From the IMG/VR virus record IMGVR_UViG_3300048929_000412, positions 1-44,897 of that record: a stretch of DNA of 44,897 nt. One strand, given 5' to 3'. Below the pieces are notes generated by a model. The model was given only the letters and a program-made list of their open reading frames with translations. It ran no database searches and was not told the origin of the DNA. The translations under genes and the position numbers were made by a program. Below, piece by piece: positions 257 through 19,734 of the stretch (its first letter is position 1; every line of letters starts with the position of its first letter). The DNA comes from a virus.

Positions 257-261
257 TCCGC
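257..261. repeat. Target-site duplication TCCGC, left copy
   Basis: The five bases TCCGC lie directly before the prophage terminus TGTAG and are repeated exactly at 43105-43109, directly after the opposite terminus CTACA. A 5-bp duplication is what Mu-type transposition leaves at its target. Confidence 0.88.
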
Positions 262-380
262 TGTAGCTCGCCGCGATCTTTCGGAATTTTGACACGAAAA
301 ATCGGAATTTTTGTTTTTCCATTCGTCATGTCAAAATCCGTTTAAAGCGCTTAGCTTAAGGCCTGCCATATATCGCCCGT
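262..380. repeat. Right phage end with candidate transposase-binding sites
   Basis: This 119-bp gene-free end carries TTTGACACGAAAAATCGGAA starting at 288 on the + strand, matching TTTGACACCGGTAACCGGAA at the opposite end (minus strand from 43099) in 8 bp + 7 bp spacer + CGGAA. An inverted partial copy, TTTGACAT, is at 328-335 on the minus strand. An 11-bp direct repeat CCGTTTAAAGC occurs at about 338 and 378. By analogy with Mu, these sequences are the likely attR binding sites for the A protein. The assignment rests on symmetry and position only. Confidence 0.65.
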
Positions 381-554
381 TTAAAGCAAGCGCTCTCCTT
401 CCTTGATGACTTCCTGAAGCCAGCCAATGGAGCTTTCGATATCTTCGACTCGCGCTAGGTCGACGGGCTGTTCGTTGTTCTTAAAAAACAGAAGATCATG
501 CAGCATGAGCTCAATGTCTTTAAACATCAGGACGTCTGGTTCTGTAATGTCCAT
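381..554 (-). CDS. Small acidic protein of unknown function at the right phage end
   Basis: This 57-aa ORF starts at the ATG at 554, chosen over an upstream in-frame start because GGGAG lies 7 bases before it. The product starts MDITEPDVLMFKDIELML and is acidic and leucine-rich with predicted helices, without a membrane segment or known motif. It is the last leftward gene before the right end, a position where transposable phages often carry non-essential cargo. I do not recognise the family. Confidence 0.5.
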   Translation of the reverse strand: MDITEPDVLMFKDIELMLHDLLFFKNNEQPVDLARVEDIESSIGWLQEVIKEGERLL

Positions 555-704
555 AATTTTTCTCCCTAAATTTGAGTAAAGATCGCTTTTTGCGTAGCGA
601 CAATTGAGCATATAGGGCTTGTTTTATTATGTACCAGTAGCGCGTGGCTTTACTGTCGATAATGCTGTAGCCAAGCTTTTGAGTGACACTTTCAGGGGGG
701 CAAA

Positions 705-980
705 ATGAGGTCTTTAGTGGCTACGGCCTGCATAGTCGTAATCGCATGCGGTACTCTATATCTCTTCACACAATGGGCAGCGTATAGCGACGCCAAAGAA
801 CGTGCGGCTGGCAGAGAACGAGCACGTGAAGAGCTATTTCGTGTTGCAGAAGCCGAGTCTGGCGACGAGGCCAAGGTTAAAGTGTTTTGCAAGATGATCG
901 TGTCGTCTGCGCCTGATATGAACGACTCGATTGCCACGGTTTGGGCACGTAACTGCACAGCACTTGGCTACAGTCACTGA
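705..980 (+). CDS. Small single-pass membrane protein, unknown function
   Basis: The 91-aa ORF starts at ATG 705 after an AGGGGGG ribosome-binding site. Residues 4-25 form a hydrophobic signal-anchor, followed by a charged segment rich in Lys, Arg and Glu (about 30-60) and a short tail with two cysteines. It runs opposite to the phage late genes and overlaps the end of the convergent 641-aa gene by 7 bp. The orientation and right-end position suggest a gene expressed independently in the lysogen. I recognise no family. A minus-strand ORF (692-958) covers the same bases, but it lacks a convincing ribosome-binding site. Confidence 0.55.
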   Translation: MRSLVATACIVVIACGTLYLFTQWAAYSDAKERAAGRERAREELFRVAEAESGDEAKVKVFCKMIVSSAPDMNDSIATVWARNCTALGYSH

Positions 981-2899
981 TTTTCATCTTCATCTAACTT
1001 TCCCGCGTTTCCTTGAGTGACTCTAACGAAGCGTCGACCGCGCTGAAACTTTTCTAACTCTTCAACGAGGCGGTCGCGCGTCTCTCTTAGCATAACGATA
1101 GAATCGATCTCCGAGCCTATTTGGATTTTTCCATCCCCTTTAGGCAGTTGGTTCACGGTTCGATACAGTTCCTCTGCCTCCGCGACAGGAGTTCCCGAGA
1201 TCTCAAGCTTATCGCTGATATTTCCCACCTTTAGTGCTGGGAAGGTCTGATCTATGATCATCGCACTTGTCAGCAACGTGTGAAGCCGCCTGATACTGGG
1301 AGCGGGATGCACATCTGCTGGATCGGGAGTCCATTCATCTTCCAAATCCATTCGCGTAACAAAGTAGTACGCGGTCAGGGCAATGAAGCACGCTGTTGCG
1401 TTCTCGCCGAAAGTTTCCTCAACTTGCGGGATTTTAACTTGTTCCTCCGTTGGTCCAAGGAATTTCATTCCGTTTTTGCTCCAAATCGCGGTGAGCGTCA
1501 CAATCGAAAACTCATCCGCATCGAGCTCGAGAGCACGCAATTCTTCGACGTTAAGAGGCCTTCCGGACTTCTCACGAGCATTTTTTAGGTCGTTGTGGCC
1601 GGAATAGATGTGACCTACCTCGTGCATAGTTATAATATCCCACGCGGCTACCTGCAGTGCGTGGGCATATCTATCTCGCACCGCATCGAGCTCTAGGTCC
1701 GGCAGGTCACGAAAGCGACTAGCCACGTCTGTAGGCGCTGCAGAATCGAATAGAGGCGGTTCGATTGCTGGGAAGTCAAATTCGAGACCCAAAAATGATT
1801 GGCTACTGGCGAGAGCGTACTTAACCAAGTTCCGCAAGACCGGCTCGATTGAATCAAAAACGGTAACTGTGTCTCTCGGCATCGTTGTGCTCGAAGCATT
1901 TATCAGGCGGCCGATGGGAGCTTTTTTGTACGCAAACGCAATATCAAGTGGATGCCCAGCAAACTCGGAAAGCCACTTGAGATTGATTTTGAAACGAAAA
2001 ACGTGAGCATCTTCTGTCGATAAGTCGGTGTTTAGGTGACGAGCTTTTTCGTATTCGGGAAATAGCTCGTTCCACCATTTTTGCTTGCCAGCTCGATCAC
2101 TGATGATTTCGTAAATCCAAGGTACGAAGGTCTCAAAGGCATGCGGTACAGGCACTTCGCAGCCTGTAATGCGTTCGCCGGAAATCAAGGTCTCAATAAG
2201 GTTTGCGGACTTTTCTGACGCTCCATCTTGACCATGAACCTTGATCAATTGTCTGTCGAAAATTTGGCCTTTCGAGCCTTCCCTGACCTCATCTATGAAC
2301 TCTACGATGCTTAGTACTATGTCAACGCGCCGAGTTTTCGATAGCAGGTGTGAGACCCTCGCGTCATGCTCAGCCAGAAAATGGTAATTGTCCTCATTGA
2401 GGTCCCTTAGCACTAGACAGAGAACATTTTTCGAGCCGTCTAGCGGTAGATTTCTCTTCTTTTTTTCGATCCTGTTTCTAAAAACACGGGGGTTCGGGAT
2501 CGACCCAAAGGTTACGATTTTCACATTGTATAGAATGTCGTCCACTAAAATGGTGAAGTCGCAATCTTTGGGCGAATCCAGCGACACAGTGATGCCGCGA
2601 GACCGGAAGCACTCGATTCCGGCCAATTTGTCGAACGCTTGGCTAAATGTAAGTGTGCTGAGGTGAGTGCTGAAACGTTGGAACCCATCGATGTCAACGA
2701 GGTTATAAAGGCGTGCCGCGAAAACGATGCCATCTCTGACGGGCACATCTTTTAGGCGCGATACAAAGCGTTTCCGTAGTGCTTCCCTAATTAGGGCGAA
2801 GGAAAAAAAGCCGATCACATCATCCGGCTCTTCCTCAGGTCTAATGTAGGACCAATACGCTTTTATCTCACTAGCAATTATTTTGCTTCGTCTTGACAT
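974..2899 (-). CDS. Putative cargo protein: nuclease-like N-terminal segment plus HEVGH metallopeptidase motif
   Basis: The product is 641 aa. The start is ATG 2899, preceded by GGAGGGG; an upstream in-frame TTG lies inside that ribosome-binding site. Residues 426-430 are HEVGH, continuing IYSGH, with ELDADEF at 458-464. This HExxH plus downstream acidic arrangement is that of gluzincin zinc peptidases (M48- or ImmA-like). Around 112-127, DCDFTILVDDILYNVK looks like the beta-hairpin core of PD-(D/E)xK nucleases, but Asn125 replaces the usual Glu/Asp, so catalysis there is doubtful. No signal peptide is visible, so it is probably cytoplasmic. It lies at the phage right end beyond the tail genes and looks AT-richer than they do. 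A role in defence or superinfection exclusion is inference. Confidence 0.72.
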   Translation of the reverse strand: MSRRSKIIASEIKAYWSYIRPEEEPDDVIGFFSFALIREALRKRFVSRLKDVPVRDGIVFAARLYNLVDIDGFQRFSTHLSTLTFSQAFDKLAGIECFRSRGITVSLDSPKDCDFTILVDDILYNVKIVTFGSIPNPRVFRNRIEKKKRNLPLDGSKNVLCLVLRDLNEDNYHFLAEHDARVSHLLSKTRRVDIVLSIVEFIDEVREGSKGQIFDRQLIKVHGQDGASEKSANLIETLISGERITGCEVPVPHAFETFVPWIYEIISDRAGKQKWWNELFPEYEKARHLNTDLSTEDAHVFRFKINLKWLSEFAGHPLDIAFAYKKAPIGRLINASSTTMPRDTVTVFDSIEPVLRNLVKYALASSQSFLGLEFDFPAIEPPLFDSAAPTDVASRFRDLPDLELDAVRDRYAHALQVAAWDIITMHEVGHIYSGHNDLKNAREKSGRPLNVEELRALELDADEFSIVTLTAIWSKNGMKFLGPTEEQVKIPQVEETFGENATACFIALTAYYFVTRMDLEDEWTPDPADVHPAPSIRRLHTLLTSAMIIDQTFPALKVGNISDKLEISGTPVAEAEELYRTVNQLPKGDGKIQIGSEIDSIVMLRETRDRLVEELEKFQRGRRFVRVTQGNAGKLDEDENQ

Positions 2900-3030
2900 T
2901 TTACCCCTCCCCAACTGCGTTTCAGGTGCGAGACCATTGCGGGATAGAAAATCTCATGTTGCCTATAGCGTCAATGACGAGCGGCCTTCGTAGGCCAAGC
3001 AGTTCACTTGGCCATTTAGAAGCTCAGTTC

Positions 3031-4689
3031 TCACAGCTCTTGGGCGACGAGTGCCGTGATCCTTGCCTTGGCTGCAATTACCGGGCCGGTCGTTTTTGTG
3101 TGCATATCGTGACCCAGATGCGTGCCGTCGGGCGTATGCGCTGTTTTAAAAACAGCGCCAGCCGCGTGGTTTTTAGTCGGAGTGGTGGAGGTAAGGAAGG
3201 TGATTACGTATGTTCCATCTCCGTTTTCAGCCACATTACTGATCGTTCCACGAAGCTCGAAATTCTCTGTGCCGGGTTCTAAAACACCGTAGGTACCTTT
3301 TCGAGGGGCGACAGGGGCCGCAACTGTCAACGTTGTAATGGCAACGCCAGCGGTCAACGCCGAGACCAGCGTGCCTCCACCAGCAACGGTAAATTCTGTG
3401 CGCTTCCATACGGGCGAAATGCCGTAACTCGTTTGTTTCATTTCTTGCTGCATTGGGCGGAAATCGACAGTCTCGTAAATAGGGGCTGGTTTCGTCATCA
3501 GCCAATCGTTGAACCACTCAAGCGCTGGTCCTGCTGTATACTGTCGTGGTTCTTGCGCCTCGACCGTTGTGTAACCTGTCGTCGTGTCAGCAGAAACGCG
3601 AGCGGTGACCGTCGACTGAATGATAGGCACGCCGGGAAATGTCAGATTAAGGAAGTCCCACCAGCTCTGTGCTCGCTCCTTTAGCAAAGGCAAGGCTTCC
3701 TCTGCGGTCGTAGGTGACGAGATGCCGGAGAAATCATTGCGAAGCCCTTGCGACCAAATAGCGGTCATTGGCCACCGGCCGCCATTGAGATTGTCCTTAA
3801 TGTACTTGAGCAAGGCGTATCTCTGGCCAAACTTCAGGTTGCCGAGAGCCACGTCCATGAAGTCAATCATGGATGCTCCATGATGGCCAAAGTTTCCAAC
3901 CCCCATTCTGCCGACGCCGCCGTCATCGTCCAGTCCCCTGACGATGCCACCGAGCATGCCGCGTAAAGATGCAAGCTGAATTGCGTCATCCTGCTGCGTA
4001 ATACTGTCACCAAAAAGAGCGAGTGAGGCGGCCAGCGAAGTTCCCGGCACAAGAACAGCGATGGGTTGGAAACCACGGCTTGTGGTCGGTGTGCCGCTTG
4101 CAACCGAGCCGCCATTGTATCCCGCTGGCAAACCAGCGGATCCTCGAATACCTCTCACCTCGCCGAGCGAGGTGTTGGCGTTCCAACCTCCGGGGCGCTT
4201 GCCACCGCTAGGCGTTGTAATTGACGTGCGAATGTAACCACCTGGGAAGTCTTCTGGAGTCGGCCCAGCAATAGCAAAACCACCGTCAGGCATGACTGCA
4301 CTTTGATTTCCATTAAACGGTACCGGAATTCTGGTCCCCGTACCCGAAGGACCTGTAAACAGAACACAGTAATCCAAAGTGTTGGAATTGCCCGGCATTA
4401 GTTCACGCCCAGCACCAACAGGGATGCCGTCACTTGTCAGGGGGCAATTCGAGTAGACGATGTAAGACCCGGCTGGAATAAACGCGTGCCATATGTCCGC
4501 GATCTCATTGAGCTGCGCGGCAGGTGGCGCGTAGTTCACTGTCGATGAACCTGAAGCGTAGGTGCGGAGCCGCGACGCGCCGAACACAAGTGCAGGCGGT
4601 GGCAACGGTGTAGGGTCGCCATTTTCAACAGTCAGCGCCAGTGGCGAACCGAACACCTTGGCAAGCAATGGATGAATGAGTGCATTCAT
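3031..4689 (-). CDS. Tail-associated SGNH hydrolase (second of two)
   Basis: The product is 552 aa. The start ATG at 4689 follows GGAG with 9-base spacing and lies just after the preceding stop at 4692. The SGNH/GDSL blocks are visible: GDS with Ser229, an Asn-Asp pair at 318-319, and DGTH with Asp521 and His524. SGNH enzymes hydrolyse esters, and tail versions usually deacetylate surface polysaccharide. The first roughly 215 residues form a separate Gly/Pro/Ser-rich region, probably for attachment or trimerisation. It is the last gene of the tail operon. The 131 bp downstream (2900-3030) contain no gene. Substrate cannot be told from the sequence. Confidence 0.78.
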   Translation of the reverse strand: MNALIHPLLAKVFGSPLALTVENGDPTPLPPPALVFGASRLRTYASGSSTVNYAPPAAQLNEIADIWHAFIPAGSYIVYSNCPLTSDGIPVGAGRELMPGNSNTLDYCVLFTGPSGTGTRIPVPFNGNQSAVMPDGGFAIAGPTPEDFPGGYIRTSITTPSGGKRPGGWNANTSLGEVRGIRGSAGLPAGYNGGSVASGTPTTSRGFQPIAVLVPGTSLAASLALFGDSITQQDDAIQLASLRGMLGGIVRGLDDDGGVGRMGVGNFGHHGASMIDFMDVALGNLKFGQRYALLKYIKDNLNGGRWPMTAIWSQGLRNDFSGISSPTTAEEALPLLKERAQSWWDFLNLTFPGVPIIQSTVTARVSADTTTGYTTVEAQEPRQYTAGPALEWFNDWLMTKPAPIYETVDFRPMQQEMKQTSYGISPVWKRTEFTVAGGGTLVSALTAGVAITTLTVAAPVAPRKGTYGVLEPGTENFELRGTISNVAENGDGTYVITFLTSTTPTKNHAAGAVFKTAHTPDGTHLGHDMHTKTTGPVIAAKARITALVAQEL

Positions 4690-4691
4690 GA

Positions 4692-4961
4692 TTAAAGGCT
4701 CCATGCTTTCAACTGGTCGCCAGCTTTGTTGCTGTGCCAGACGAGTTTCACAAAAGGCATCTTCAGCACAGATATGAATGCATCACGGGCGACGCTGGCT
4801 GATGTGACATATGCAAATGGCGCGTCTTCATTTAGCCGGGCGTGCACCTCAACAATCGCCTTCCTTTCGCCGGTGCCGTCGATCTGGATTATCTCGTCGG
4901 CACTTGGGCTCCAGGTTGCGCTTTCGCCTCTATCGGTGGTTTGGTTGATACGTACGGTCAT
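4692..4961 (-). CDS. Small tail-region protein of unknown function
   Basis: The 89-aa ORF starts at ATG 4961 after AAAGGA. It starts MTVRINQTTDRGESATW and looks like an all-beta domain with no membrane segment. It sits 11 bp after the LamG-like tail protein and almost abuts the SGNH hydrolase, so the three are probably co-translated. It may be a chaperone or accessory fold for one of the two flanking fibre proteins, but I recognise no family. Confidence 0.7.
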   Translation of the reverse strand: MTVRINQTTDRGESATWSPSADEIIQIDGTGERKAIVEVHARLNEDAPFAYVTSASVARDAFISVLKMPFVKLVWHSNKAGDQLKAWSL

Positions 4962-4972
4962 GGGTGGTTCCT

Positions 4973-5830
4973 TTAAAAGACGTTGCGTGCGATTGTTCTG
5001 GCCCAGTCTGCATCGAGCAGGTCAACCGGATCTCGGCCGCTGCGATGAAGGTTCTCTACGAACCCGCGATGTAGTTTGAACTTCACGGACTTTCTTTCAT
5101 CCGTGGTGAGTGCGGAGTTGGTCCAGAAGCCACGAGCCACGCCCATGGCGCCTGAAGCGGCCGCGATGTTTGCTGTGTTCTTGGCACCGGCTGCTGCGGT
5201 GGTAACGACCTGACCCGTTGCAGTTTTCAGGCGTGCACCATACTCGGTGGCGGTGCGCCAGACGGCCAACTGTGAAAAGACGCCGTAAGCAGCTGCCCCG
5301 GCGAGGCCGAGCGTCAATGTCGAAACCGCGTTGATTGCGGTCTGCCGACGTATCGAAAACGTCGTGCCGGTCAAGGCAATCAGGCAAATGTCGGGTTCGT
5401 TCACGTAGCTGTTGAGGCCTTGGGAACCTTGCATGATGCTTTTGAGCGACGACGGAAAGTCAGAGGCGATTGGTGGGGTGAGATACATGCAGATCAAGAA
5501 TTCCTGATCTGCAGCCAAATCTGCCCAGACCGCCGCAGGTATCTGGATGAAGTTTCCAGGCAAAGTGGACTCGGAAAAATCAAGGCCATTGCCAACCAGT
5601 GCAACAGACTGATTGCCGTCGCGTAAGACCAGCTGCGAATTGTTACGTTCGGCCATGTCCTTGACTGGCTTGCCACTGGCAACAGCCGTGCCCGCCTCAT
5701 AGCACCAGCGGAAAGCGATATCGAATAGGAAACGGACACCGTCATTGTCACCACGCACCAAAGCATCACGCTTGCGCATTGGCTTGGAAACATCGGCTGA
5801 CACGCCGGGAACTGTGATGCTGAGTACCAT
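4973..5830 (-). CDS. Tail protein, possible LamG/concanavalin-like domain
   Basis: The product is 285 aa, starting at ATG 5830 after a strong AAGGAG. Residues about 75-210 contain GNGLDFSESTLPGNFIQIP and further short strands, a pattern seen in laminin-G/concanavalin-like binding domains. An Ala/Gly-rich stretch follows (about 205-235), and the C-terminal roughly 50 residues are charged. It lies between two SGNH-hydrolase tail genes, which suggests carbohydrate binding at the tail tip or fibre. The domain call is by eye only. Confidence 0.6.
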   Translation of the reverse strand: MVLSITVPGVSADVSKPMRKRDALVRGDNDGVRFLFDIAFRWCYEAGTAVASGKPVKDMAERNNSQLVLRDGNQSVALVGNGLDFSESTLPGNFIQIPAAVWADLAADQEFLICMYLTPPIASDFPSSLKSIMQGSQGLNSYVNEPDICLIALTGTTFSIRRQTAINAVSTLTLGLAGAAAYGVFSQLAVWRTATEYGARLKTATGQVVTTAAAGAKNTANIAAASGAMGVARGFWTNSALTTDERKSVKFKLHRGFVENLHRSGRDPVDLLDADWARTIARNVF

Positions 5831-5840
5831 CTTGAACTCC

Positions 5841-7598
5841 TTACATTTGGGTGAGCATGCGCAGGACGGCGTCAGTCAGCGCACGGCCTCCGGTAGGCGG
5901 TTCTGGGTGTAGAAGATCGACGTTGAACCAAGGACGGATGCCTGTCGGCATGTAGTCCGCGACGTTCTCGCCAAAGAGCGGTTGGAAGTCGATGTAAGCG
6001 CACCGCTTGGTTTTGGCGGTCGCTCGGATGACCTTTGTATATTGCGACATTGGACGCGGATTGTCGGTCCGGCCGTTTTCGCAAGGTGCCATCAGAAGAA
6101 TGTCCATGGCCGGATTAACTGCACGCAGTCGGTCGATCTGTTCGTTGATCTGCGTTGTGAAGTCACCAATGAAGGTGCTGCGCTGGTCGTTGGTACCAAA
6201 CATCATGATGGTGAGATTGACCTCGCCCAGGGCGGCAAAAGCTGCTTTCCACTTGGTGGCGTCGCGGGCAGTCCATTGCGCCAGGCGCGATCCAGTTGCC
6301 GCCAGTTTATGGACGACAACACCGTTGCCGGCGCGACTGCAAACCATACCGCAAAGCGAAACTGTACCGCTCACACTCTCTATATTAAGCGTCCATGCGC
6401 CTGCAGGCTTTCCGGTCAATGCGATGGTACCGACGTTGCCGGCCGGTGTCGTGTTCGGCAAAGGCATATTTGTCCAGGTGCCACCATTCCAGCGGTACCG
6501 CATCACACCGTCTGCAGTGCCGAGATAGTATAGCGTGAACGATGTGTCGCCATTGTCAGGGCCACTGACCTGGACAGTGGCGCCAGCGCTGGCTGTCGAT
6601 AGAAGCGCAATGTCGGGGGTGTCGGCATCGGCATATGTTGGCGTCCAACCGGAAGGCACTGCAAGAGTATAGGTTGTCGAGAGCACAGAACCATTGCGCA
6701 GCTGTGTCCTGGTGTCTGGATAACCAAAGCCAATCCAGCCGGAACTAAAACCGCCATGTTCAGCAATGAGTGTTTCCGCCAAAGGACCGGAATATCGCAG
6801 CGGGCTATGGCTCCAGCTATCACCGAGGATGGCGATGCCGAACTTCATGGCATCACCGCGCTTCAGGGCACGCAGCCGCATGCGGGTCTCGCGAAGATAC
6901 CAGGAGCCCCAATGCCAATCGAGTGGATAGCCATCGGCATCGGTGGACATGTTGAGGCGTTCGACAAGTGTTGGCAGGTTGCCACGTGCTGTCACCAGTT
7001 CCTTTGGTGGACCGGTCTCTGCGCTGCTACCACTGTTGTTCACGAAGGAAATCACGCGACCGGTCTCGTCCACGAAATAGACGCCATCGACACTATCGGT
7101 TGTTTCGTAAATCTCGGCCTGAATGCCGGGCTTCTCAAGGTCTTTCGAGGAAAAGAGGATGCGGCCGACTTCATCGGTAAACATCCACGCGGTGCCGGTC
7201 TCTGTTGTCTCATATTCGCCCGAGCCTACTTTCTGGGCCATGGCTGCGATCACCGAGGCGATGCCTGAAGAACCAATGCGAACCCACCGACCCCAACCCT
7301 GCGACCAGGTGTAACGGCCAGCATTGGGTACGACTTCACCGCTGTAGCCAGTAGCTGTCGCGGCTGCGTGCGTACCGGCATCGCTTTCAACGACCTCGGC
7401 ACCTTGCCCGGTCTTTGTGCCTGCAATCGCCAACAGAGCTGGCCACGTGGCCGTGTAGATCATTTCGGCCGGAATGAACCCGCTGCCAGCAAGTTGAAGC
7501 GCGAGCGCATCAATAGCGACCTGGACGGTGTTACCGTTGCGATTGCCGAGGACGCTGTCTGCCAGAGACGATTGAGGCTGTAGTGCTGTGGTGGACAT
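5841..7598 (-). CDS. Tail fibre protein with SGNH hydrolase domain (first of two)
   Basis: The product is 585 aa. The start ATG at 7598 is chosen because the tip-protein gene ends 8 bases earlier and a GAGG precedes it; a longer frame to 7778 overlaps that gene. Residues 1-45 (SLADSVLGNR, VQVAIDALALQLAGSG) resemble the attachment region of rhizobial phage tail fibres. Residues 136-190 contain two DEVGRI/DETGRV-type repeats. The SGNH blocks are GDS with Ser261, GTND at 468-471, and DLLH with Asp561 and His564. A roughly 150-residue insertion between blocks I and III looks like a beta-sandwich carbohydrate-binding module. It probably deacetylates or otherwise de-esterifies host surface glycans. 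Confidence 0.82.
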   Translation of the reverse strand: MSTTALQPQSSLADSVLGNRNGNTVQVAIDALALQLAGSGFIPAEMIYTATWPALLAIAGTKTGQGAEVVESDAGTHAAATATGYSGEVVPNAGRYTWSQGWGRWVRIGSSGIASVIAAMAQKVGSGEYETTETGTAWMFTDEVGRILFSSKDLEKPGIQAEIYETTDSVDGVYFVDETGRVISFVNNSGSSAETGPPKELVTARGNLPTLVERLNMSTDADGYPLDWHWGSWYLRETRMRLRALKRGDAMKFGIAILGDSWSHSPLRYSGPLAETLIAEHGGFSSGWIGFGYPDTRTQLRNGSVLSTTYTLAVPSGWTPTYADADTPDIALLSTASAGATVQVSGPDNGDTSFTLYYLGTADGVMRYRWNGGTWTNMPLPNTTPAGNVGTIALTGKPAGAWTLNIESVSGTVSLCGMVCSRAGNGVVVHKLAATGSRLAQWTARDATKWKAAFAALGEVNLTIMMFGTNDQRSTFIGDFTTQINEQIDRLRAVNPAMDILLMAPCENGRTDNPRPMSQYTKVIRATAKTKRCAYIDFQPLFGENVADYMPTGIRPWFNVDLLHPEPPTGGRALTDAVLRMLTQM

Positions 7599-7605
7599 GG
7601 GGACC

Positions 7606-10600
7606 TCATCGAATGGTGGCGCTGAAGGAACCGACGGCGTTGCCGGGAACTCCATCGCTGTTGAGTGGGGAAAGCCAGTAAAAGTGCGTGCCAGCATCAA
7701 GGCTGGTTGTCGTCTCAAGGAAGACAACAACATTGTCGATCGCACCGTCGAAGTCGGCCGAGGCGATAAAACGGACATTGGTATTGCCCGTCACGGCGAC
7801 CAACCGATCAGAAAAATCGCCGTTGGCGGTGCACGCAACACCCACAACGTCGGTACCGCCGTTGAGACGCGGGGTGACGGAACCAGCTGTTCGGCCGGTC
7901 ACGGTGTAGGCAATGCGGTATGCTTTTTCCGCTGCCAGGGTGATGTTCTGGACCAGACTGCCGGTTGCACCGGCTGTGTGTCTCGCAACACCGCTGCTCC
8001 AAGCCCAGCCAGTGCCGTACAGCCACGGCGCTGAGTATGCAAAATCTCCGTTAGAAATCAGGTTGGTGCGCGTGCCATCACCATCAATGTGGCTGTAGGA
8101 ACGTGACGGCTCTACCGGGATTGATGCACCTGCGGGAACAGCATCCATGAAATTAGGTGTTGTTGAACGGTGGAACTGGATGGCAGTCGTGGCGCTGTCG
8201 TCGGTCGTTTCAAAAGTCAGTCGCACACCACCCAAAAGCGCCGTGATGGTGATAGCGCCAATATCCAGTTGCTCTGGAATAGGTCCGTCACCAGAACCAA
8301 CGATCGTTGTGACAATCGCCGTTGGGTCGCTCTCGATGCCACCGGCCGCAATAGCAAAGGCACGCAGCTGCACGGTATCATCGCGGACATAGCCGGTGAT
8401 TGGAGCGCCACCAGCGCCAGCAGCAATCGTGACAGTCGTCCAACTCGTCGCGCCAAACAGTCTGTGCTCGATGCGCAGCAACTGCGTGACGGTGGTGCTT
8501 GCAGTGCCTGGGGCGAGGGTGACGATAAAACCGTTCGCACTGCCGGTACCGGAAAAGCCAGTCTCGATTGAAACCCATTCCGGCACAGATGGCTTGGTGG
8601 TTGGCGGATCAATCTCACCACCGACACGGCCGTTCCATGCCGGCGCAACTTCAGCGTCGGTCAGCTGGTCAATAATGGGCGCTGCATCGATCAGCCTGAA
8701 ATGGCTTGAAAAGTCTTCGCCAGCCTCAACACCGCTGACAATCAGGGGCATGCTTTCCGATGCCATCAAACCAAAATGGACGATATCGCCCTCTGTCGGC
8801 CGGTCTTCGGTATCGGCCAGCATCAAAACATCTGTCCGTCCAGCGATCGTCACAACACGATGTAGAACGCTGATGCCGATTGTATCGTCAGCGGCCGTAA
8901 ACATACGCCAGCGCAGGCCATAACTTTCACCTGCAGACATTTCGACAATGTCATCGAGCTGGATGATGGTGCCTTCGACGGCCTTCACACGCGCTGCGCG
9001 TTGGGTCGAGCTCAAAACATCAAACGATCCCATGACAAGATCGCCGCGCGTGGCGGGGCTGATTGGTCCGTCTTGGACGAGCGTATACGTGTCTGGACGA
9101 TGGATAGCCTCGTACATGCGACGGCGCGCTTCAATCCAGATTTCGTTGGGATCAGTCTTGCCGGGCATTTCAAGCTGCTCGGTAAGCGTGATTTCGCCGG
9201 TGTAGCCGGGCCAACGCACAATGCGTTCCGATGGCTGGTAGTCGTTGGTCGCATCAACAAACGGCACTCTGAATGCGTGGGGCTTTCTGGAATAGACGCG
9301 GTTGGCCTTGAACGAATGCGAGTTGCGCGGGCTTAGGTGATGAACGACCAGTTCCTGTGGTTTGTCCATGACAACACCCCAGCGAGTGCCATCATGGCGG
9401 GGACGTGCCCGACCTGCTGCCGCGATCTCTTTCGTGACTTCGTCCAGCGTCATTTCCGTGTCGATAACGCGATCGTACTTCAGGCCTTTGATGCGGCAGA
9501 AGTTGTGAAACTCCACGAAGTTGGCAAAATCGATACCTGTGTTTGCCACAGGGCGCGCATATGCACCTGACTGCAGCACATAGCGCAGAAGACTTGCCGG
9601 GTTCTCTGTGTGGCGCTGTATCCAGCTGCTTGTGGCAACGTCGTAATCCCAACAGAAACACCGCACCATCAAGTTGAAACTGTCGAGTGTGCCCTGAAGC
9701 TGATAGGTCGCCTGGACGCGGACCGCCACCAGTGACAATTTCTGGCTCATATTGATTGGATATTCCGGCCGGATCGTCTGCAGGGCGGCAAGTACCGATC
9801 GGCTTTGGACCTGCGATGAAACATGCTCATCGGTCATGCGGTCAAATTCGATTTCCCAACGGCCGCGACTTGGCAACGTCCACGTGACCTGACGGAAGAA
9901 ACCTTCGGCTTTCTTGTTGGTGAACGGGTACGTGCCGACTGTCTGCCACGCCTCTGTGCCGGCAAGGCGTTGACGGATGCGGATTTGCACGGTGACGGAC
10001 TGCGCCTTGCCTTCATCATTGTATTTGATGAGACCACCGGGAAACGAAAAGATTGCCGACGCCTGGGCGGCATCAAGGCCCGTGGCGCGCTTGACAGGTG
10101 TATCTCTCGCCGCGCCGCTGGTGACATCGCCCTGCGAGTTTCGAGGCAGCGGCCGCGTCAGCTCGACGTTGATGGGTTCTTCAAACACCTGCTTTGGATA
10201 GATCGTAACCGGGCCGTCGTTGCTCCATCCGCTCCGCTGTTCAACCGAAATGTTGGTGTATTCGGCAATCGACGTCTCACCAATGCGAAGGTCTTCAAGG
10301 TAGTTTGGACCGTAGCCACAGATGAACAGCGCACGAATGTAATGCTTGTCGCCGACGATCTCGCTGTAAGGCGATGCAGCATAAGGAGGCGCATATCTAT
10401 GTTTGCCCAGGACAAAGGGAATGACACCATTCGGCCGTGCCTCATTGCGCCAGCCTGTGATTGAGTAGGTCGCATCGCCCTTATTGTTGCTGTTGGCTTT
10501 GGAGGATGGTGGGGGAATGAGCGCATTAAGCAGCATATTGCCCAGAACGGTCACACCAAGACCAATGATCGCAGACGCCATGCCGGTCGAAATACCGAGC

Positions 10601-10953
10601 GCACCGCCAAGGATCGGCCCCCAGAGTGCGCCGAGTGCCACGGCGGCAATCGATATGACAATAGATAGAACGGACCGCACCACGCTCTTGCCCGGCACAA
10701 TGCGAATAATCACCTGCGTGCCAGCATGCGGGCGAACCCGATGCCAGATGCTCTTGCGTATCGTGGCCATCTGGCCTTGTGGCGATACGAGCGTGACCCG
10801 CACCAGGCTAAGCGTGTGATCACCAGCGTCAGGCATCGCTAGTGCAACGATCTGGGCAAGCGTCAGGCCGTCAGGCAATTCCATCCGAATGCGGTTGCTT
10901 TGTTGTGCAACCATCGGCGCGAGAAGGACGGGAACCTTGTTTTGAAGGGTCAT
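7606..10953 (-). CDS. Host-specificity tail-tip protein (lambda gpJ-like)
   Basis: The product is 1115 aa. The start ATG at 10953 overlaps the preceding stop (TGATG). A hydrophobic Gly/Ala-rich segment at about 85-135 is typical of gpJ-type central tip proteins, followed by the long beta-rich tail-tip domain and C-terminal fibronectin-like domains from about residue 790. It directly follows the NlpC/P60-type gene, an order used in siphovirus tail operons. The C-terminal part should contact the receptor. Family assignment rests on length, order and the hydrophobic segment, with no search done. Confidence 0.82.
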   Translation of the reverse strand: MTLQNKVPVLLAPMVAQQSNRIRMELPDGLTLAQIVALAMPDAGDHTLSLVRVTLVSPQGQMATIRKSIWHRVRPHAGTQVIIRIVPGKSVVRSVLSIVISIAAVALGALWGPILGGALGISTGMASAIIGLGVTVLGNMLLNALIPPPSSKANSNNKGDATYSITGWRNEARPNGVIPFVLGKHRYAPPYAASPYSEIVGDKHYIRALFICGYGPNYLEDLRIGETSIAEYTNISVEQRSGWSNDGPVTIYPKQVFEEPINVELTRPLPRNSQGDVTSGAARDTPVKRATGLDAAQASAIFSFPGGLIKYNDEGKAQSVTVQIRIRQRLAGTEAWQTVGTYPFTNKKAEGFFRQVTWTLPSRGRWEIEFDRMTDEHVSSQVQSRSVLAALQTIRPEYPINMSQKLSLVAVRVQATYQLQGTLDSFNLMVRCFCWDYDVATSSWIQRHTENPASLLRYVLQSGAYARPVANTGIDFANFVEFHNFCRIKGLKYDRVIDTEMTLDEVTKEIAAAGRARPRHDGTRWGVVMDKPQELVVHHLSPRNSHSFKANRVYSRKPHAFRVPFVDATNDYQPSERIVRWPGYTGEITLTEQLEMPGKTDPNEIWIEARRRMYEAIHRPDTYTLVQDGPISPATRGDLVMGSFDVLSSTQRAARVKAVEGTIIQLDDIVEMSAGESYGLRWRMFTAADDTIGISVLHRVVTIAGRTDVLMLADTEDRPTEGDIVHFGLMASESMPLIVSGVEAGEDFSSHFRLIDAAPIIDQLTDAEVAPAWNGRVGGEIDPPTTKPSVPEWVSIETGFSGTGSANGFIVTLAPGTASTTVTQLLRIEHRLFGATSWTTVTIAAGAGGAPITGYVRDDTVQLRAFAIAAGGIESDPTAIVTTIVGSGDGPIPEQLDIGAITITALLGGVRLTFETTDDSATTAIQFHRSTTPNFMDAVPAGASIPVEPSRSYSHIDGDGTRTNLISNGDFAYSAPWLYGTGWAWSSGVARHTAGATGSLVQNITLAAEKAYRIAYTVTGRTAGSVTPRLNGGTDVVGVACTANGDFSDRLVAVTGNTNVRFIASADFDGAIDNVVVFLETTTSLDAGTHFYWLSPLNSDGVPGNAVGSFSATIR

Positions 10954-11369
10954 CAAGCCACCTCTGAACCGAGTTTAAGGTGTCTGTAAAAGCCGGTTAA
11001 GCGCGGTGCCCATTGGCCTGATGTGTAGTTTTCAATGCAGGCCTGATCGAAGGGAACGTGTAGCATCAGGCCTGGGCGAAGAACAATGCCGACATGGCTG
11101 GCATATTTACCGCGACGGAAGAATGCCACATCCCATTCTTGGGGCTCGGCCACTTCGTACCAAGGCCCGACTTGCTGCTTATGCTCGACCAGCTCGGCAA
11201 TCTCGGCACGTTCGTCCGGAGAGACATAGTCTTCGGCAAGGCTTGGCAATTCGATGCCAACGCATTCGCGATAGACCATGACCACAAGGCCCCAGCAATC
11301 CACACCGGAGCGATCGCGGCCATGATCCTTGTATGGCAAACCGACATAGGGAACTGACCAATGCTTCAT
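10953..11369 (-). CDS. NlpC/P60-type tail peptidoglycan peptidase
   Basis: The product is 138 aa. Cys25 in GVDCWGLV, His92 in ASHVGIV and His104 in LMLHVPF match the catalytic Cys-His-His order of phage NlpC/P60 cell-wall peptidases. Such tail-tip enzymes cut peptide cross-links during DNA entry. The gene overlaps both neighbours (ATGA upstream, TGATG downstream), showing tight translational coupling within the minor tail set. No signal peptide is present, as expected for a virion protein. Confidence 0.87.
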   Translation of the reverse strand: MKHWSVPYVGLPYKDHGRDRSGVDCWGLVVMVYRECVGIELPSLAEDYVSPDERAEIAELVEHKQQVGPWYEVAEPQEWDVAFFRRGKYASHVGIVLRPGLMLHVPFDQACIENYTSGQWAPRLTGFYRHLKLGSEVA

Positions 11370-11890
11370 CTGTGCAATCCTGGGAAACGGTCGCGTGTCA
11401 TGCGACCGGATGGGAAGTATTCTTCGGTGATGTCTTCACGGCTGAACGACACCATGACCTCGCCGGCATCAATGTCGGCCGAGATGATATTGAGGTCGGA
11501 CCACTGCGCCTCAATGAGGTTAGGGCTATCGGCCAGCACGACAGCCATTGCGATTGTGGCGAGGTCGTTGAATGAACGCAGGACACGGGCGATCTCATCA
11601 TCGATGTTCTCGATAATGATCGTGCCGGCTGGCGGGGTATCTTCGAGGTCGGACGGCAGAAGTGTTGACGCAAGCACAAAGTAGAAAGGCTGCGTTGCAG
11701 GGTTGCTGCCCCTCCATGTCGATCGCGTGCCGTAGATCAACGGTTCTTCTGACAGGCGAACCGTGTTGTCGGTCGACAGACGGATTGGCTCGGGCAAGTC
11801 GGGATGCGTGATGTAAAACAGCGCAACATAGACTTCATCTGTTGCCTCGGCATCCTGTGCCAGGCGAGCATTCAGCGAAACGCGTCTCAT
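11366..11890 (-). CDS. Minor tail / hub protein, DUF1833-like
   Basis: The product is 174 aa. The style and the C-terminal motif SGRMTRDRFPGL resemble the DUF1833 family found between tape measure and NlpC genes in siphovirus-like prophages, a position equivalent to lambda gpL. It overlaps both flanking genes by 4 bp (ATGA). It is likely part of the distal tail complex. The family name is from recognition and was not searched. Confidence 0.72.
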   Translation of the reverse strand: MRRVSLNARLAQDAEATDEVYVALFYITHPDLPEPIRLSTDNTVRLSEEPLIYGTRSTWRGSNPATQPFYFVLASTLLPSDLEDTPPAGTIIIENIDDEIARVLRSFNDLATIAMAVVLADSPNLIEAQWSDLNIISADIDAGEVMVSFSREDITEEYFPSGRMTRDRFPGLHR

Positions 11891-12309
11891 GGCATCACCG
11901 TGATTGAAAAGGATTTGCGGAACTGAGTGCCTTCGACGGTTTCAACCGGCTGGCTGTCACCGAACATGCAAAGCCATGTGGCGGCCATCAGAACGGGTTT
12001 ACCGCTGCCATCAAGAACCGGCTGGCCGTTGGCATCAGTCATCGTCCATCCGTCTGTTGTCGGGTCTGGCATGCGAAACGGCAAAGAACCCCAACGCGTG
12101 GTGCCCTCGTAGAAATCATCAAAGACTGACTTGCCGGCGCGGTTGACCAGGATCGACAGAGTGACGTTGTAAGGCACACCACTGAAGCGCAGGCGATAGG
12201 ATGGTGCGCCTGCATCAGTTCTGCGTTTAAGCCGCGCTTCCATCGGTGATTTCGAGAATGTGTTGCGCTCGGGGCGCGGCAAGGACGTGGGCCAAATCGG
12301 GAGTGTCAT
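11887..12309 (-). CDS. Minor tail protein (lambda gpM-position)
   Basis: The product is 140 aa and starts with MTLPIWPTSLPRPERNTFS. It lies directly after the tape measure with an ATGA overlap and before the DUF1833-like gene, matching the gpM position in lambda. The beta-rich composition suits a distal tail protein. There are no catalytic motifs. Confidence 0.7.
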   Translation of the reverse strand: MTLPIWPTSLPRPERNTFSKSPMEARLKRRTDAGAPSYRLRFSGVPYNVTLSILVNRAGKSVFDDFYEGTTRWGSLPFRMPDPTTDGWTMTDANGQPVLDGSGKPVLMAATWLCMFGDSQPVETVEGTQFRKSFSITVMP

Positions 12310-15300
12310 CGAACAATCCCCTTAGGCTTGAGGCCGTATCTGCCACGCATTGCGCGACCAAACCCGCCGCCCTTCTGTTCGGCAGCTGCGGCCATTTCAT
12401 CAGAAAGCGTCAACCGGTACTGACGTCGGCCGTGATCATCACTGGTCTCCTCAACCTGGCCTGTAATTGGTGTCGAGGTCTGATTGAGGATTTGAATGGA
12501 GGGTGCAGAGTTGTTGTTGGCGCTGGCGCCAGCGCTGGCACCGCCAAATGAAAATGGTGTTGTGCTGACATAGCCACCTGTCGAATAACCGCGCAGTGCG
12601 CCACGCCGAATAGCTTCAAGCGCCGGTACTCCGATCTTAGATGTGGATACCGCGTCAAAGACATATTCTTTTTCGTGGACCAGACCGGCGACTTTCTGGG
12701 CGTCAGTGCCGCCAGTTGGACCACCCTTGTCCCACAAGCCCCAAGTGCCAGACGATATTGCGCCGGCAACCTGCGGCGATCCTGCGATAATTGACTGGTT
12801 CCAGCCGCCGCCAAACAAACCACTAAACAGGCCGCTGAACAGGCCGCCACCACCACCGCCTGGCGACGATGGATAGAAGCTGCTGAGATTTTGGCCGAAA
12901 GTGTTGAAGCCCGACCCAAGGTTGCCGAGCCCCTGCGCCGCGACATTCGTGCTTTGAGTTGCGTTGCCAAGGGCGGTGTTGAATTTCTGGACGTAGGACG
13001 TGCCAGTAGTCCCGAGGAGGTCAGCAGCGTTGCCACCTTTCCCGACAGAACCGGGACCGCCAAACCACGCCTGGGCAGCGCCGTTTGCTCCGTACTTGGA
13101 AACATAACCGCCAAAAATCTTGTCGAATACGGCATCTTGCGCCGAGGAATTGCCGAGGAACTGTTGCGGCGTGAGGGATTGGCCGAGTGCCTGTTTCGTC
13201 CAGGCGGGAATGTTCGCACCCATGACCTGATATGCACCATAAGCGCGGTCGCCAGATGCCGTGATTGGACCAAGAGCGGAATAACCGCCACTGCCGGCAC
13301 TCTCGATTGCCTTGATAGCAGCACGGTAGGCCGACATGTCCGTTGTGCCCGTTGAACCTGTCACGAGGTTGTCGTTGGCAGCCCCACCCAACAGGCCACC
13401 AAGTCCGCCCGCCAAACCACCGTTGATGGTCACGGTACCGGCATTCACTGACATCGCCCCGACAGACTGGCCCATGGCGCTGCTGACGATGGAAGCTGGA
13501 TCACTTGCACCGCCGCCAAACAGGCGCGAGAAGATACCGCCAAGACCGCCGACATCGGACATCGTTGCATTATCGGAACCGAACAGTGCGTTTTTAAGCG
13601 GGTTCTTGATCGCCAGTTCGCTGAACATGCTGGTGATGTCTTTTGCAACGTTCTCAAGAGCATCCTCGAAATCACCGTCGATCAGGCCATCAACCAGACC
13701 ATCGATCGTGCCTTCAGCTGTGGACTTGACCTTGTCCCATGCGTCCGCTTGTTTCTCGATCTGCCTGTTGAGGACGGCGGCGGCGTCGGCCTGCTCGCGC
13801 ATCTGTTTGGCAAGGTTGCTGTTGGTGTCGATGCCACGGCGTTTGATTTCCTGCTCTACTCGCAGGAGTGCCAGACTACGTTCACGCACATTGTCATTGG
13901 CACCGATCAAAGCTTGTTCGACGCGCAGCTGCTCCAGGCGTTCATTCTGACTGCGCAGATATTCCTGTCCGGAGGCTTCCTTTTCCTGGGCGGCCAGACG
14001 TGCGTTGCTGTCGCGCATGTCCGAAATGATGCGGTTAAGCCTTTCCTTGGCATCACCCTCGGCAATGGCAGCGGCGGCAATCAGCGGACGCAGTGCGATT
14101 TCTTCCTGAAGCATGCGGTTGGCGTCAGCGCTGGTGATCGTGCCGTTCGCCACCAGAGCGTTGAGGCGCGAGCGCACATCAAACTCAAGCTCCATATCCT
14201 GCACATAGGCCTGTGCGCCGGCGATGGTTTCCTCAATCACCCGGTTTCTGGCGCGGTTGACTTCGGCCTCGATCTTGGCGCTGTCGATCTCCTGATCGGC
14301 CATTTCGAGACGGACGCGACGAGCTTCCAGTTCGGCCCGAAGCAATGGATTACGCTCATTGGCAATCTGGATGTCCAGATTATCAAGGGCAATGGCGCGC
14401 TCCTGGCTGTTGATCAGTGCATCGAGCACCCGTTTCTTGGCCGCCATTGCAACTTCGTCGCGCTTGATCTGGACGTCATCACGTCCGCCAAGGTTTTGGC
14501 CGCTTTCCAGCGTGGCGATTTCATTACGCAATGTTTCGATACGAATGCCACCGGCATTGGCACCGGATGCGTCAGACACCGCACGGACAGCGCGGCTGCG
14601 TTGGACTTCCTCGGCTACGCGCTGTCTACGAAGATCTTCAGCATCGCGCTGGCTGATTTTATCCAGCAGTTCTTTTTCTTTGTCGATGTCACCGAGTTGA
14701 AGCATGAATGCTGGATTTAACAGCTGCAGCATTCCCATCGGCGATGACGAGAGGGTTTCCTTTGCCCGGCGGACCTCATCAAGCTGTTCTTCTAATGTTG
14801 GTCCCGACACGGCTCGGTCGATCGCGCCACCGACCGCGTTCATCGCATTGCTGGCAGTGGTGGTGACATAGTTCCAGGCGCGGCCGAGTTTGGATGTCGC
14901 CTCTGCTGCACTGGCAAGGCGGTCTGGCAATGCATCCAGCAAAACCGCCTGCGCTTCAGATGTGCGGTTTGATCTCGCAAGTGTGGTTGCGTGACGGGCA
15001 GTTGCCGCATCGATCAAACCATACTGCTGATACAGGGTTTCGGCAGCCTTGGCAGGATCGGCAAACATCTCGGCCAAAGTGCCAGCCGCTTCTTCTGCCG
15101 TCTGGCCAATCGTCGCCCCGAAGTCCTTGGAAATTGAAATTAAGTCTTCGAAATTTTCCGAACCGATGCGGCCGGTGCGAAGAAACTGCGCCTCCATCGA
15201 GCGGGCAGAGCTGACCGAAATACCGGCAGCAGCTGCGCCAGCACGTGCAGAGGCTTCCATCTCGGCCGCTGTGCCTGCGACGGCTCGGCCGAGACCGGAT

Positions 15301-16406
15301 GCAGCGGTTTCAACCTCTTTCGTTGACTTCAAGTAACCGTTGTAGGCGATGAGGCTGAGAGCAGTTGCGGCCGCCAAAGCACCAACAGTCGCAACAAGAG
15401 GTGTCATCAAGCGGGCTGTGCTCGATGCTATGGTGCCGAGATCCTTTATCGCGTTGTTCACACCGTTCTTGCCGGTGTAGAGCTGGATGATCTGTGGTCC
15501 CTGCTGGGCAAAGATCATTGCTGGGTTCATGCCCATTGCGGCCGTCTGGCCGATATCGAACAGCTGATAGGTCAGGTTCTGGCGGCGAAATTGTCCGGCC
15601 CGATCGGCGCCGCCATCCGCGCTGCGCCCCTTGAGAACGTTGACGGTCTCCAACGCGGACTTGCGCTGCCTGGATATCGCAGCCGTCATTTCGTCGGCGG
15701 TTATCGCACCGACCTTGTGCGCCTCGCGGATTTCGGCAAGCTGGGCCTTGTAGGCAGTCAGTGTCGCAAAGACCGGATTGTATTTTGAACGCATCTGGTC
15801 GAGCTGGCGGCCATAGGCCTCGATATCCGAACCACGATCTGGCGAAACGGTTGCGCCAGCCACGACACCTTCAGCTGCGCGCTTACGTGCCAACGCCAGA
15901 CCGTCAAGTTTGCTGGTCAACGCATTAAGCGAATTCGTTTCGCGAATACGGGCGTCGATCGCGGCAGAAGCTGACAAGGCACCAACGCGCTGCGCGTCGT
16001 TGATTTCTTCGATCTGGTTCCGGTAACGCTGCTGTGCGGCAAACAACGGATCGAACTTCGCCTGCAGGCGGTCGAGTTCCTGGCCATATGCGGCAATATC
16101 GCCTGCGCGACCGTTTCGGTTCGCAGCCGGCGCAGTGATGTTCGCAAAGCTGTTGATCAGCCTGTCCATGCTCGGGCGAATGCTGTCAGCGGCAGCACCA
16201 ATGGCGGCAATGTTTGCGGGTGCATCGGATTGAGCGGCCGTTCCAAGTTTTTCAACGGTGTTGATGGCTCGATCAAGCTTTGGCACAATCCGATCGGCTT
16301 GCGCGCCGATCTCATTCACGTGCGTTATGGTTTCAGCCGCACCGGTCTTTGCACCAGCCGCATTGATATCAACGCCGATCGATATTCTGTATGGAGTGGT
16401 CGTCAT
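12306..16406 (-). CDS. Tail tape measure protein with embedded transglycosylase-like domain
   Basis: The product is 1366 aa, the longest gene here. At roughly 45-50 bases of tail per 100 residues in known families, it implies a long flexible tail. Two related segments occur near residues 107-170 and 193-255 (YGQELDRLQAKFDPLFAAQ versus YGRQLDQMRSKYNPVFATL), an internal duplication. A hydrophobic segment lies at about 335-360 and coiled coil follows to about 890. Around 1030-1130, AIKAIESAGSG with candidate catalytic Glu1035, then GDRAYGAYQVMG, resembles lytic transglycosylases. It overlaps the T frame upstream and the gpM-like gene downstream by 4 bp each. Confidence 0.9.
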   Translation of the reverse strand: MTTTPYRISIGVDINAAGAKTGAAETITHVNEIGAQADRIVPKLDRAINTVEKLGTAAQSDAPANIAAIGAAADSIRPSMDRLINSFANITAPAANRNGRAGDIAAYGQELDRLQAKFDPLFAAQQRYRNQIEEINDAQRVGALSASAAIDARIRETNSLNALTSKLDGLALARKRAAEGVVAGATVSPDRGSDIEAYGRQLDQMRSKYNPVFATLTAYKAQLAEIREAHKVGAITADEMTAAISRQRKSALETVNVLKGRSADGGADRAGQFRRQNLTYQLFDIGQTAAMGMNPAMIFAQQGPQIIQLYTGKNGVNNAIKDLGTIASSTARLMTPLVATVGALAAATALSLIAYNGYLKSTKEVETAASGLGRAVAGTAAEMEASARAGAAAAGISVSSARSMEAQFLRTGRIGSENFEDLISISKDFGATIGQTAEEAAGTLAEMFADPAKAAETLYQQYGLIDAATARHATTLARSNRTSEAQAVLLDALPDRLASAAEATSKLGRAWNYVTTTASNAMNAVGGAIDRAVSGPTLEEQLDEVRRAKETLSSSPMGMLQLLNPAFMLQLGDIDKEKELLDKISQRDAEDLRRQRVAEEVQRSRAVRAVSDASGANAGGIRIETLRNEIATLESGQNLGGRDDVQIKRDEVAMAAKKRVLDALINSQERAIALDNLDIQIANERNPLLRAELEARRVRLEMADQEIDSAKIEAEVNRARNRVIEETIAGAQAYVQDMELEFDVRSRLNALVANGTITSADANRMLQEEIALRPLIAAAAIAEGDAKERLNRIISDMRDSNARLAAQEKEASGQEYLRSQNERLEQLRVEQALIGANDNVRERSLALLRVEQEIKRRGIDTNSNLAKQMREQADAAAVLNRQIEKQADAWDKVKSTAEGTIDGLVDGLIDGDFEDALENVAKDITSMFSELAIKNPLKNALFGSDNATMSDVGGLGGIFSRLFGGGASDPASIVSSAMGQSVGAMSVNAGTVTINGGLAGGLGGLLGGAANDNLVTGSTGTTDMSAYRAAIKAIESAGSGGYSALGPITASGDRAYGAYQVMGANIPAWTKQALGQSLTPQQFLGNSSAQDAVFDKIFGGYVSKYGANGAAQAWFGGPGSVGKGGNAADLLGTTGTSYVQKFNTALGNATQSTNVAAQGLGNLGSGFNTFGQNLSSFYPSSPGGGGGGLFSGLFSGLFGGGWNQSIIAGSPQVAGAISSGTWGLWDKGGPTGGTDAQKVAGLVHEKEYVFDAVSTSKIGVPALEAIRRGALRGYSTGGYVSTTPFSFGGASAGASANNNSAPSIQILNQTSTPITGQVEETSDDHGRRQYRLTLSDEMAAAAEQKGGGFGRAMRGRYGLKPKGIVR

Positions 16407-16777
16407 CGATCAGCCTCTGCAAAGATTGAAAGCGCCGTGCGCTCCATATCCATGACATCATCAAAAACATGGTCAGGTAGGTTGCGGCGTCGAAGGATGA
16501 CATCGAGGGCGGTGTAATCGATGCCTATCCAGATTAGGCCTGCCATCGTCGCTGCCACCCGCCACTGTGTTTCAGCGGCAAGGAAAGCGTTCAGGCTGTC
16601 CCAATTTTCTTTCCAGACCTCGAATGCATCATCGTCCGGACGAACGACTGTGTCTGGATCGACTACGAGTCCCATCTGAAGGAAGTCGGCCGCGATCGCA
16701 TCATCAACCGTCGCGGCCACCTTTTCGTCAGCACGGCCGAGGCGGTTGTATGCCCAGGCGCGCGCTGCATTGGTTAG
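16403..16777 (-). CDS. Tail assembly chaperone T frame, expressed by -1 frameshift from G
   Basis: This frame is open from the slippery site to the tape measure start. An independent start at GTG 16720 gives 105 aa but has no good ribosome-binding site. Entry by -1 shift at 16777-16783 reads CTA ACC AAT first and yields a 252-aa G-T fusion (128 + 19 + 105 residues). The T region resembles DUF1799-type tail assembly chaperones. In lambda-like phages, G and GT coat the tape measure during tail assembly and are absent from the virion. It overlaps the tape measure start by 4 bp. Confidence 0.75.
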   Translation of the reverse strand, partial: LTNAARAWAYNRLGRADEKVAATVDDAIAADFLQMGLVVDPDTVVRPDDDAFEVWKENWDSLNAFLAAETQWRVAATMAGLIWIGIDYTALDVILRRRNLPDHVFDDVMDMERTALSIFAEADR

Positions 16778-17160: not shown

Positions 17161-17165
17161 TGATG

Positions 17166-18118: not shown

Positions 18119-18120
18119 AT

Positions 18121-18264: not shown

Positions 18265-18266
18265 CG

Positions 18267-19117: not shown

Positions 19118-19118
19118 T

Positions 19119-19706: not shown

Positions 19707-19734
19707 GGGGGTAAGGCTCCTTCGGATTTTGCGG

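What the first reader, a model, noticed from the sequence alone, without database searches (positions are those of the whole stretch)
974..2899. 641-aa right-end protein combining a nuclease-like segment with an HEVGH peptidase motif
The gene lies outside the phage core and carries a DxxxILYNVK stretch resembling a PD-(D/E)xK core with a degenerate acidic residue, followed by HEVGH...ELDADEF. A protease joined to a nuclease-like sensor is seen in several defence systems, but I do not recognise this architecture. It is the best single candidate here for a new exclusion or defence protein.
Basis: partly seen in the sequence, partly recalled or inferred. Interest (0 to 1): 0.72.

Follow-up and report, generated by a model that had tools for sequence, protein, structure and literature searches.

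The report
Lit-like peptidase fusion in Mu-like prophage
A dormant Mu-like virus in an Agrobacterium-like bacterium carries, in a swap-in cargo slot at its right end, a protein-cutting zinc enzyme distantly related to the E. coli anti-phage protein Lit, fused to a front half that matched nothing we could search and whose resemblance to a DNA-cutting enzyme is only weak.

Summary
The 641-aa ORF is real (974-2899, minus strand, good ribosome-binding site). It lies inside a Mu-like prophage (inferred 262..43104, 5-bp duplication TCCGC), in a right-end slot where relatives carry other cargo: a Dam methylase with an HNH-like protein, a Dam methylase with an unknown protein, or an acyltransferase. 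The C-terminal half (about 290-622) is a zinc metallopeptidase domain: HEVGH 426-430, E458/AD, HPxxxxR. A profile built without this protein recovers it at 4e-15, and recovers E. coli Lit at 2.5e-5. The NCBIfam Lit model weakly matches 5 of 9 family members. The closest folds are M48 (sub-threshold). Relatives of 340-400 aa recur as phage cargo, all without the N-terminal half. That half has no detectable homologue in any collection searched. Its PD-(D/E)xK-like signature has the catalytic acid replaced by Asn; a pattern like it arises in 1.4% of shuffles, and structure prediction there is low-confidence. So the peptidase reading is firm, the nuclease-like reading is only suggestive, and a Lit-type exclusion role is the best but untested explanation (about 0.45). 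It is a new variant of a known kind.

The parts
974..2899 (-). 641-aa two-part protein (the finding): N-terminal orphan half plus C-terminal Lit/M48-like zinc metallopeptidase
   Evidence: ATG with SD-like GGGGAGG just upstream, GC 48.6% against 56.0% for the phage body
2030..2899 (-). N-terminal half, residues 1-290, no detectable homologue
2402..2647 (-). possible degenerate PD-(D/E)xK-like core, residues 85-166 (E95, D112/D114, N125-V-K127); predicted order helix-strand-strand-helix-strand at low confidence
   Evidence: secondary structure; motif and shuffles
1034..2029 (-). C-terminal Lit/M48-like metallopeptidase domain, residues 291-622
   Evidence: pLDDT about 53-88 over residues 341-620
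1610..1624 (-). HEVGH, residues 426-430 (inferred zinc ligands His426/His430, catalytic Glu427)
   Evidence: invariant H, E, H in 11 aligned proteins including E. coli Lit
1508..1528 (-). ELDADEF, residues 458-464 (E458 inferred third zinc ligand; A461, D462 invariant)
1289..1309 (-). HPAPSIR, residues 531-537, the HPxxxxR motif (P and R invariant, H nearly so)
2903..2911 (-). ribosome-binding-site-like GGGGAGGGG before the ATG
262..43104 (.). Mu-like prophage; phage right end at 262 (low side), left end at 43104
   Evidence: TGTAG termini and 5-bp repeat; DDE_2/Mu transposase and Mu portal; host flanks match L003 at 92-98%
257..261 (+). 5-bp target-site duplication TCCGC, right-end side
43105..43109 (+). 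5-bp target-site duplication TCCGC, left-end side
287..297 (+). end-proximal TTTTGACACGA, repeated inverted at 326-336 (one mismatch) and at 42975-42985; likely transposase sites
   Evidence: the only two exact copies in the window are near the two ends
42975..42985 (-). TTTTGACACGA at the other phage end
705..980 (+). 91-aa ORF with a hydrophobic N-terminus, convergent with the finding; second right-end cargo candidate
   Evidence: no family match above cut-off
3031..4704 (-). last tail-module gene (557 aa) before the cargo slot
   Evidence: related phages carry a protein of similar length and position just before their cargo genes

Best explanation
The gene is accessory cargo (a moron) in the right-end slot of a Mu-like prophage of an Agrobacterium-like host. 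It encodes a soluble zinc metallopeptidase of a broad, phage-borne family distantly related to Lit, with an extra N-terminal half. Most likely mechanism: the lysogen makes the protein in a latent state; the N-terminal half recognises a product of an incoming phage (or phage nucleic acid or a complex); the Lit-like domain (His426, His430 and Glu458 holding zinc, Glu427 activating water) then cuts an essential host or phage protein and stops the infection, so the prophage protects its host from competitors. Shown: the prophage setting, the cargo slot, the peptidase family with intact catalytic residues, and its remote kinship to Lit. Inferred: peptidase activity, latency, the N-terminal half as sensor, the substrate, and exclusion itself.
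For: Homology: a profile of 12 relatives that excludes this protein recovers it at E=4e-15 among about 6,000 frames, and K-12 Lit at 2.5e-5 ahead of every unrelated frame. NCBIfam 'phage exclusion protein Lit' matches 5 of 9 aligned members, best 5e-4; the PADLOC Lit model matches 4 of 11 (one is Lit itself), and capP and peptidase_U41 models match others. H426, E427, H430, H435, E458, A461, D462, P532 and R537 are invariant across 11 proteins including Lit. Context: a 5-bp duplication and matching termini place the gene inside the prophage. L003, 98% identical in the host flank, joins host to the same TGTAGCTCGCCGCGAT at a point 28 bp away. Sister phages L084/L085 carry Dam plus an HNH-like or an unknown protein in the same slot; remnants in L003/L202 carry an acyltransferase, or a Dam fragment plus an unknown protein. 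The gene is AT-richer than the phage (48.6 against 56.0% GC). Relatives in other phages sit opposite to structural genes (L114, L118, L119) or just after tail/lysis genes (L115, L116, and the prophage end in L102). Literature: Lit is a latent HExxH zinc protease of prophage e14 that cuts EF-Tu when T4 Gol is made (PMC3014915); Mu-like phages have accessory regions of low GC with counter-defence genes (PMC4378225).
Against: Nothing here tests activity or phage resistance. The direct Lit match of this protein alone is poor (E=0.14; no PADLOC hit), and the sub-threshold Pfam hits of relatives are to M48, a family with many housekeeping members. The family also occurs on a Rhizobium plasmid with no annotated phage genes nearby. 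The gene lies on the same strand as the late genes, only 131 bp after the last tail gene, with no convincing promoter or terminator of its own (promoter-like count equals shuffles), so expression in the lysogen is unproven. The N-terminal half has no homologues, so a sensor role is a guess. In the termini search about 2 pairs were expected by chance, so the exact ends rest on the added evidence of matching termini, L003 and the end-proximal repeats.
Confidence: 0.45

Rival explanations
1. A regulatory peptidase of the ImmA/CapP kind: on a DNA-damage or nucleic-acid signal sensed by the N-terminal half it cuts a repressor, its own or that of a co-resident element, and so controls induction or a defence operon.
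For: PADLOC capP matches two family members, best 0.0014; tandem relatives in L114 are preceded by a small 82-aa ORF that reads like a DNA-binding protein; a nucleic-acid-binding N-terminal half would fit a degenerate nuclease fold.
Against: No repressor gene beside it; the phage repressor (HTH plus S24 peptidase, with its own self-cleavage domain) is at the far end, 40427-41113. The HExxH...ExxAD...HPxxxxR signature is Lit/M48-like rather than M78-like.
Confidence: 0.2
2. A late lytic function: the gene is read with the tail genes and the peptidase acts on host or virion proteins late in infection, for example as a virion-associated or take-over protease.
For: Same strand as, and directly after, the late tail module; no strong promoter of its own.
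Against: The slot is variable between related phages, the gene is compositionally foreign, and in other phages relatives lie on the strand opposite to structural genes.
Confidence: 0.17
3. An ordinary lysogenic-conversion or metabolic cargo peptidase (protein quality control, surface or competition trait) with no role in phage exclusion.
For: Family members also sit outside annotated phages; M48 peptidases are mostly quality-control enzymes (general knowledge); other cargo in this slot includes an acyltransferase.
Against: Closest characterised relative by profile is Lit; most relatives found in viral contigs are placed as phage cargo.
Confidence: 0.18

Closest known systems
Lit (phage exclusion / cell death peptidase, E. 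coli e14 prophage)
   Same: Prophage-encoded; HExxH-x4-H, ExxAD and HPxxxxR motifs all align; the family profile finds Lit at 2.5e-5; sister proteins match the NCBIfam and PADLOC Lit models.
   Different: Lit is 297 aa without the 290-aa N-terminal half; only about 13% identity to this domain; this protein itself scores far below the Lit equivalog cut-off (11.4 against 274 bits); substrate and trigger unknown.
Peptidase family M48 (HtpX, BepA; PF01435)
   Same: HExxH, downstream E-x-x-A-D and HP...R; sub-threshold PF01435 matches in relatives; the best solved-structure sequence match, itself insignificant, is an HtpX homologue.
   Different: No membrane segments seen; no significant match of this protein; fold search gave no PDB match at E<=0.001.
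M48-family peptidase of the RRDM defence island of EPEC
   Same: A predicted M48-family zinc peptidase encoded in a functional anti-phage island (PMC12255303).
   Different: Homology to this protein not tested; its own role in the island is not described in the passages read.
PD-(D/E)xK nuclease superfamily
   Same: Possible helix-strand-strand-helix-strand order and D-x(10)-N-V-K spacing in residues 85-166.
   Different: Catalytic acid is Asn; no profile match at E<=10 in Pfam; low-confidence model.

Membership tests
Lit (phage exclusion peptidase) | Zinc-peptidase signature HExxH...ExxAD...HPxxxxR | tested here: met
   aligned invariants shared with K-12 Lit
Lit (phage exclusion peptidase) | Score above the curated Lit equivalog cut-off | tested here: not met
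   11.4 bits against 274; so it is not filed as Lit, only as a distant relative
Lit (phage exclusion peptidase) | Encoded in a prophage | tested here: met
Lit (phage exclusion peptidase) | Cuts EF-Tu on a phage trigger and blocks infection | not testable with these tools
   needs biochemistry and plating tests
M48 peptidase (PF01435) | Profile match at the curated cut-off | tested here: not met
   no match of this protein; relatives 10-20 bits against 20.3
M48-like gluzincin fold | HExxH helix followed by the helix with the third zinc ligand | tested here: inconclusive
   helices 406-432 and 451-476 at pLDDT roughly 63-88; fold search did not return an M48 structure
PD-(D/E)xK nuclease | Acid at the (D/E)xK position | tested here: not met
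   N125-V-K127
PD-(D/E)xK nuclease | Restriction-endonuclease-like fold | tested here: inconclusive
   matching secondary-structure order, pLDDT about 25-50
Moron / accessory cargo of Mu-like phage | Occupies a slot that differs between related phages and differs in composition | tested here: met
Moron / accessory cargo of Mu-like phage | Own promoter and terminator | tested here: inconclusive
   one 9/12 promoter-like site overlapping the start; counts equal shuffles

The most novel reading that the evidence does not exclude
A two-part exclusion protein in which a catalytically dead nuclease-fold module has become the sensor of phage DNA or RNA and switches on a Lit-type peptidase: sensor and effector would be joined in one chain, instead of the peptidase relying on a separate phage peptide as Lit does.
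Probability: 0.15. Interest if true: 0.78.

Novelty: new variant of a known kind. Interest (0 to 1): 0.5.

Why it matters
Lit is a textbook exclusion protein. The scan shows that Lit/M48-like peptidases recur as cargo in unrelated phages, including tandem pairs and this fusion, mostly without curated names. If exclusion is confirmed it would extend a classic mechanism to rhizobial hosts, and would give a way to ask what triggers such peptidases when no Gol peptide is known.

Tried and rejected
Family libraries (Pfam, PHROGs, PADLOC, NCBIfam) with the whole protein: no significant hit. Scans of viral and genome contigs with the protein alone found no relative, and viral scans with P0002 or A1 found none; alignment A3 worked. 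N-terminal half against plasmids, phages and 347 Alphaproteobacteria: only chance hits, e.g. an MFS-transporter-like protein in L207. The idea that the left-end ORF 41696-42325 is related to the N-terminal half: hhalign gives nothing. Searching viral contigs for the right-end 16-mer: 52 hits, about what chance could give in so large a collection, not followed. Single-sequence structure model: useless, pLDDT 32. Fold search with the better model: PDB best matches are nuclear-receptor domains at E>0.05, treated as meaningless; one BFVD match, an uncharacterised 428-aa myovirus protein at 5.8e-4, with a poor superposition. The possibility that the gene is host DNA was rejected on the termini evidence. 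Protein comparison with A5 failed internally and was replaced.

Full report
Observation. The 641-codon frame at 974-2899 on the minus strand is real, starts at an ATG behind a strong ribosome-binding-site-like sequence and is AT-richer than the phage body. HEVGH (426-430), ELDADEF (458-464) and HPAPSIR (531-537) are as located. The written 'DxxxILYNVK' is not literal; the stretch is CDFTILVDDILYNVK (113-127).

Setting. The window is an IMG/VR virus record holding a Mu-like prophage: Mu transposase and Mu portal, S24-type repressor. Host flanks match Agrobacterium sp. AGB01 (L003) at 98% over window 1-233 and 92% over 43143-44895. A search for TG...CA ends with a 5-bp repeat gave 262..43104 with TCCGC as the better of two candidates; since about two such pairs are expected by chance (inference from counts), I weigh three further points: both termini begin TGTAG; L003 joins the same host flank to the same TGTAGCTCGCCGCGAT sequence 28 bp away, as an independent insertion (or a small deletion) would; and the only two exact copies of TTTTGACACGA in the window lie near the two ends. 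The gene is therefore most probably prophage-borne.

Slot. In related phages L084 and L085 the genes after the last tail gene are a Dam methylase followed by an HNH-like protein or an unknown protein. Right-end remnants beside the same tRNA-Met in L003 and L202 carry an acyltransferase, or a Dam fragment with an unknown 185-aa protein. So the 641-aa gene occupies a variable cargo slot, as described for accessory regions of Mu-like Pseudomonas phages (PMC4378225).

Peptidase half. tblastn found a 366-aa protein on a Rhizobium plasmid (E=0.07; pairwise 26%) and a 342-aa protein at a prophage end next to mnmA in another Rhizobiaceae genome. Profiles from these reached more genomes and seven viral contigs. 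All relatives read are single-domain proteins of about 340-400 aa where complete. Leaving this protein out, the family profile recovers it at 4e-15. The zinc-site residues are invariant. K-12 Lit shares the full signature, is recovered at 2.5e-5, and the Lit models of NCBIfam and PADLOC match sister proteins. M48 (PF01435) is matched below its cut-off by several relatives. I file the domain as Lit/M48-like, not as Lit, because the Lit equivalog cut-off is not met.

Relatives as phage cargo. In viral contigs the peptidase gene lies opposite to structural genes in L114 (two tandem copies), L118 and L119, after tail or lysis genes in L115 and L116, and at a prophage end in L102. This recurrent placement argues for a benefit to phage or lysogen.

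N-terminal half. No homologue was found in 395 Rhizobiaceae genomes, 347 Alphaproteobacteria, the phage and plasmid collections or IMG/VR at the sensitivities used. Two structure predictions give helix-strand-strand-helix-strand for residues 85-166 at low confidence, which fits a PD-(D/E)xK core with Asn125 at the acid position; the pattern has a 1.4% chance frequency by shuffling. This is a lead, not a result.

Mechanism. By analogy with Lit, a latent HExxH protease activated on EF-Tu by the T4 Gol peptide (PMC3014915), I consider superinfection exclusion by triggered proteolysis most likely (0.45), with regulatory peptidase, late lytic function and neutral cargo as rivals. No step of the mechanism has been tested.

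Noticed in passing
window 257-261 and 43105-43109; L003 12500-12720; L202 1850-3620: The stretch beside mnmA and tRNA-Met(CAT) in Agrobacterium carries this prophage or right-end remnants of similar phages with different cargo in three genomes, and another prophage end in G366 (L102) also abuts mnmA; it looks like an insertion hot spot.
   Followed up: partly
window 41122-42325: Two overlapping ORFs on the plus strand just after the repressor (235 and 209 aa, GC 48.7%), without family matches; the second has a YVDILI...ISAK stretch reminiscent of a degenerate nuclease motif. Candidate immunity-region cargo; the large overlap may hide a frameshift.
   Followed up: partly
window 705-980: 91-aa ORF with a hydrophobic N-terminus, convergent with the peptidase gene and overlapping its last codons.
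   Followed up: no
L114 5735-8235: Two tandem Lit-like peptidase genes behind a small 82-aa ORF, on the strand opposite to the structural genes of an uncultivated phage.
   Followed up: no
L202 2261-2818: 185-aa cargo protein beside a Dam fragment in a right-end remnant; it reads like a nucleotide-binding or hydrolase-type defence protein but has no Pfam match.
   Followed up: partly
window 42414-42680: 88-aa ORF followed by a hairpin-and-T-run near the left phage end, unassigned.
   Followed up: no
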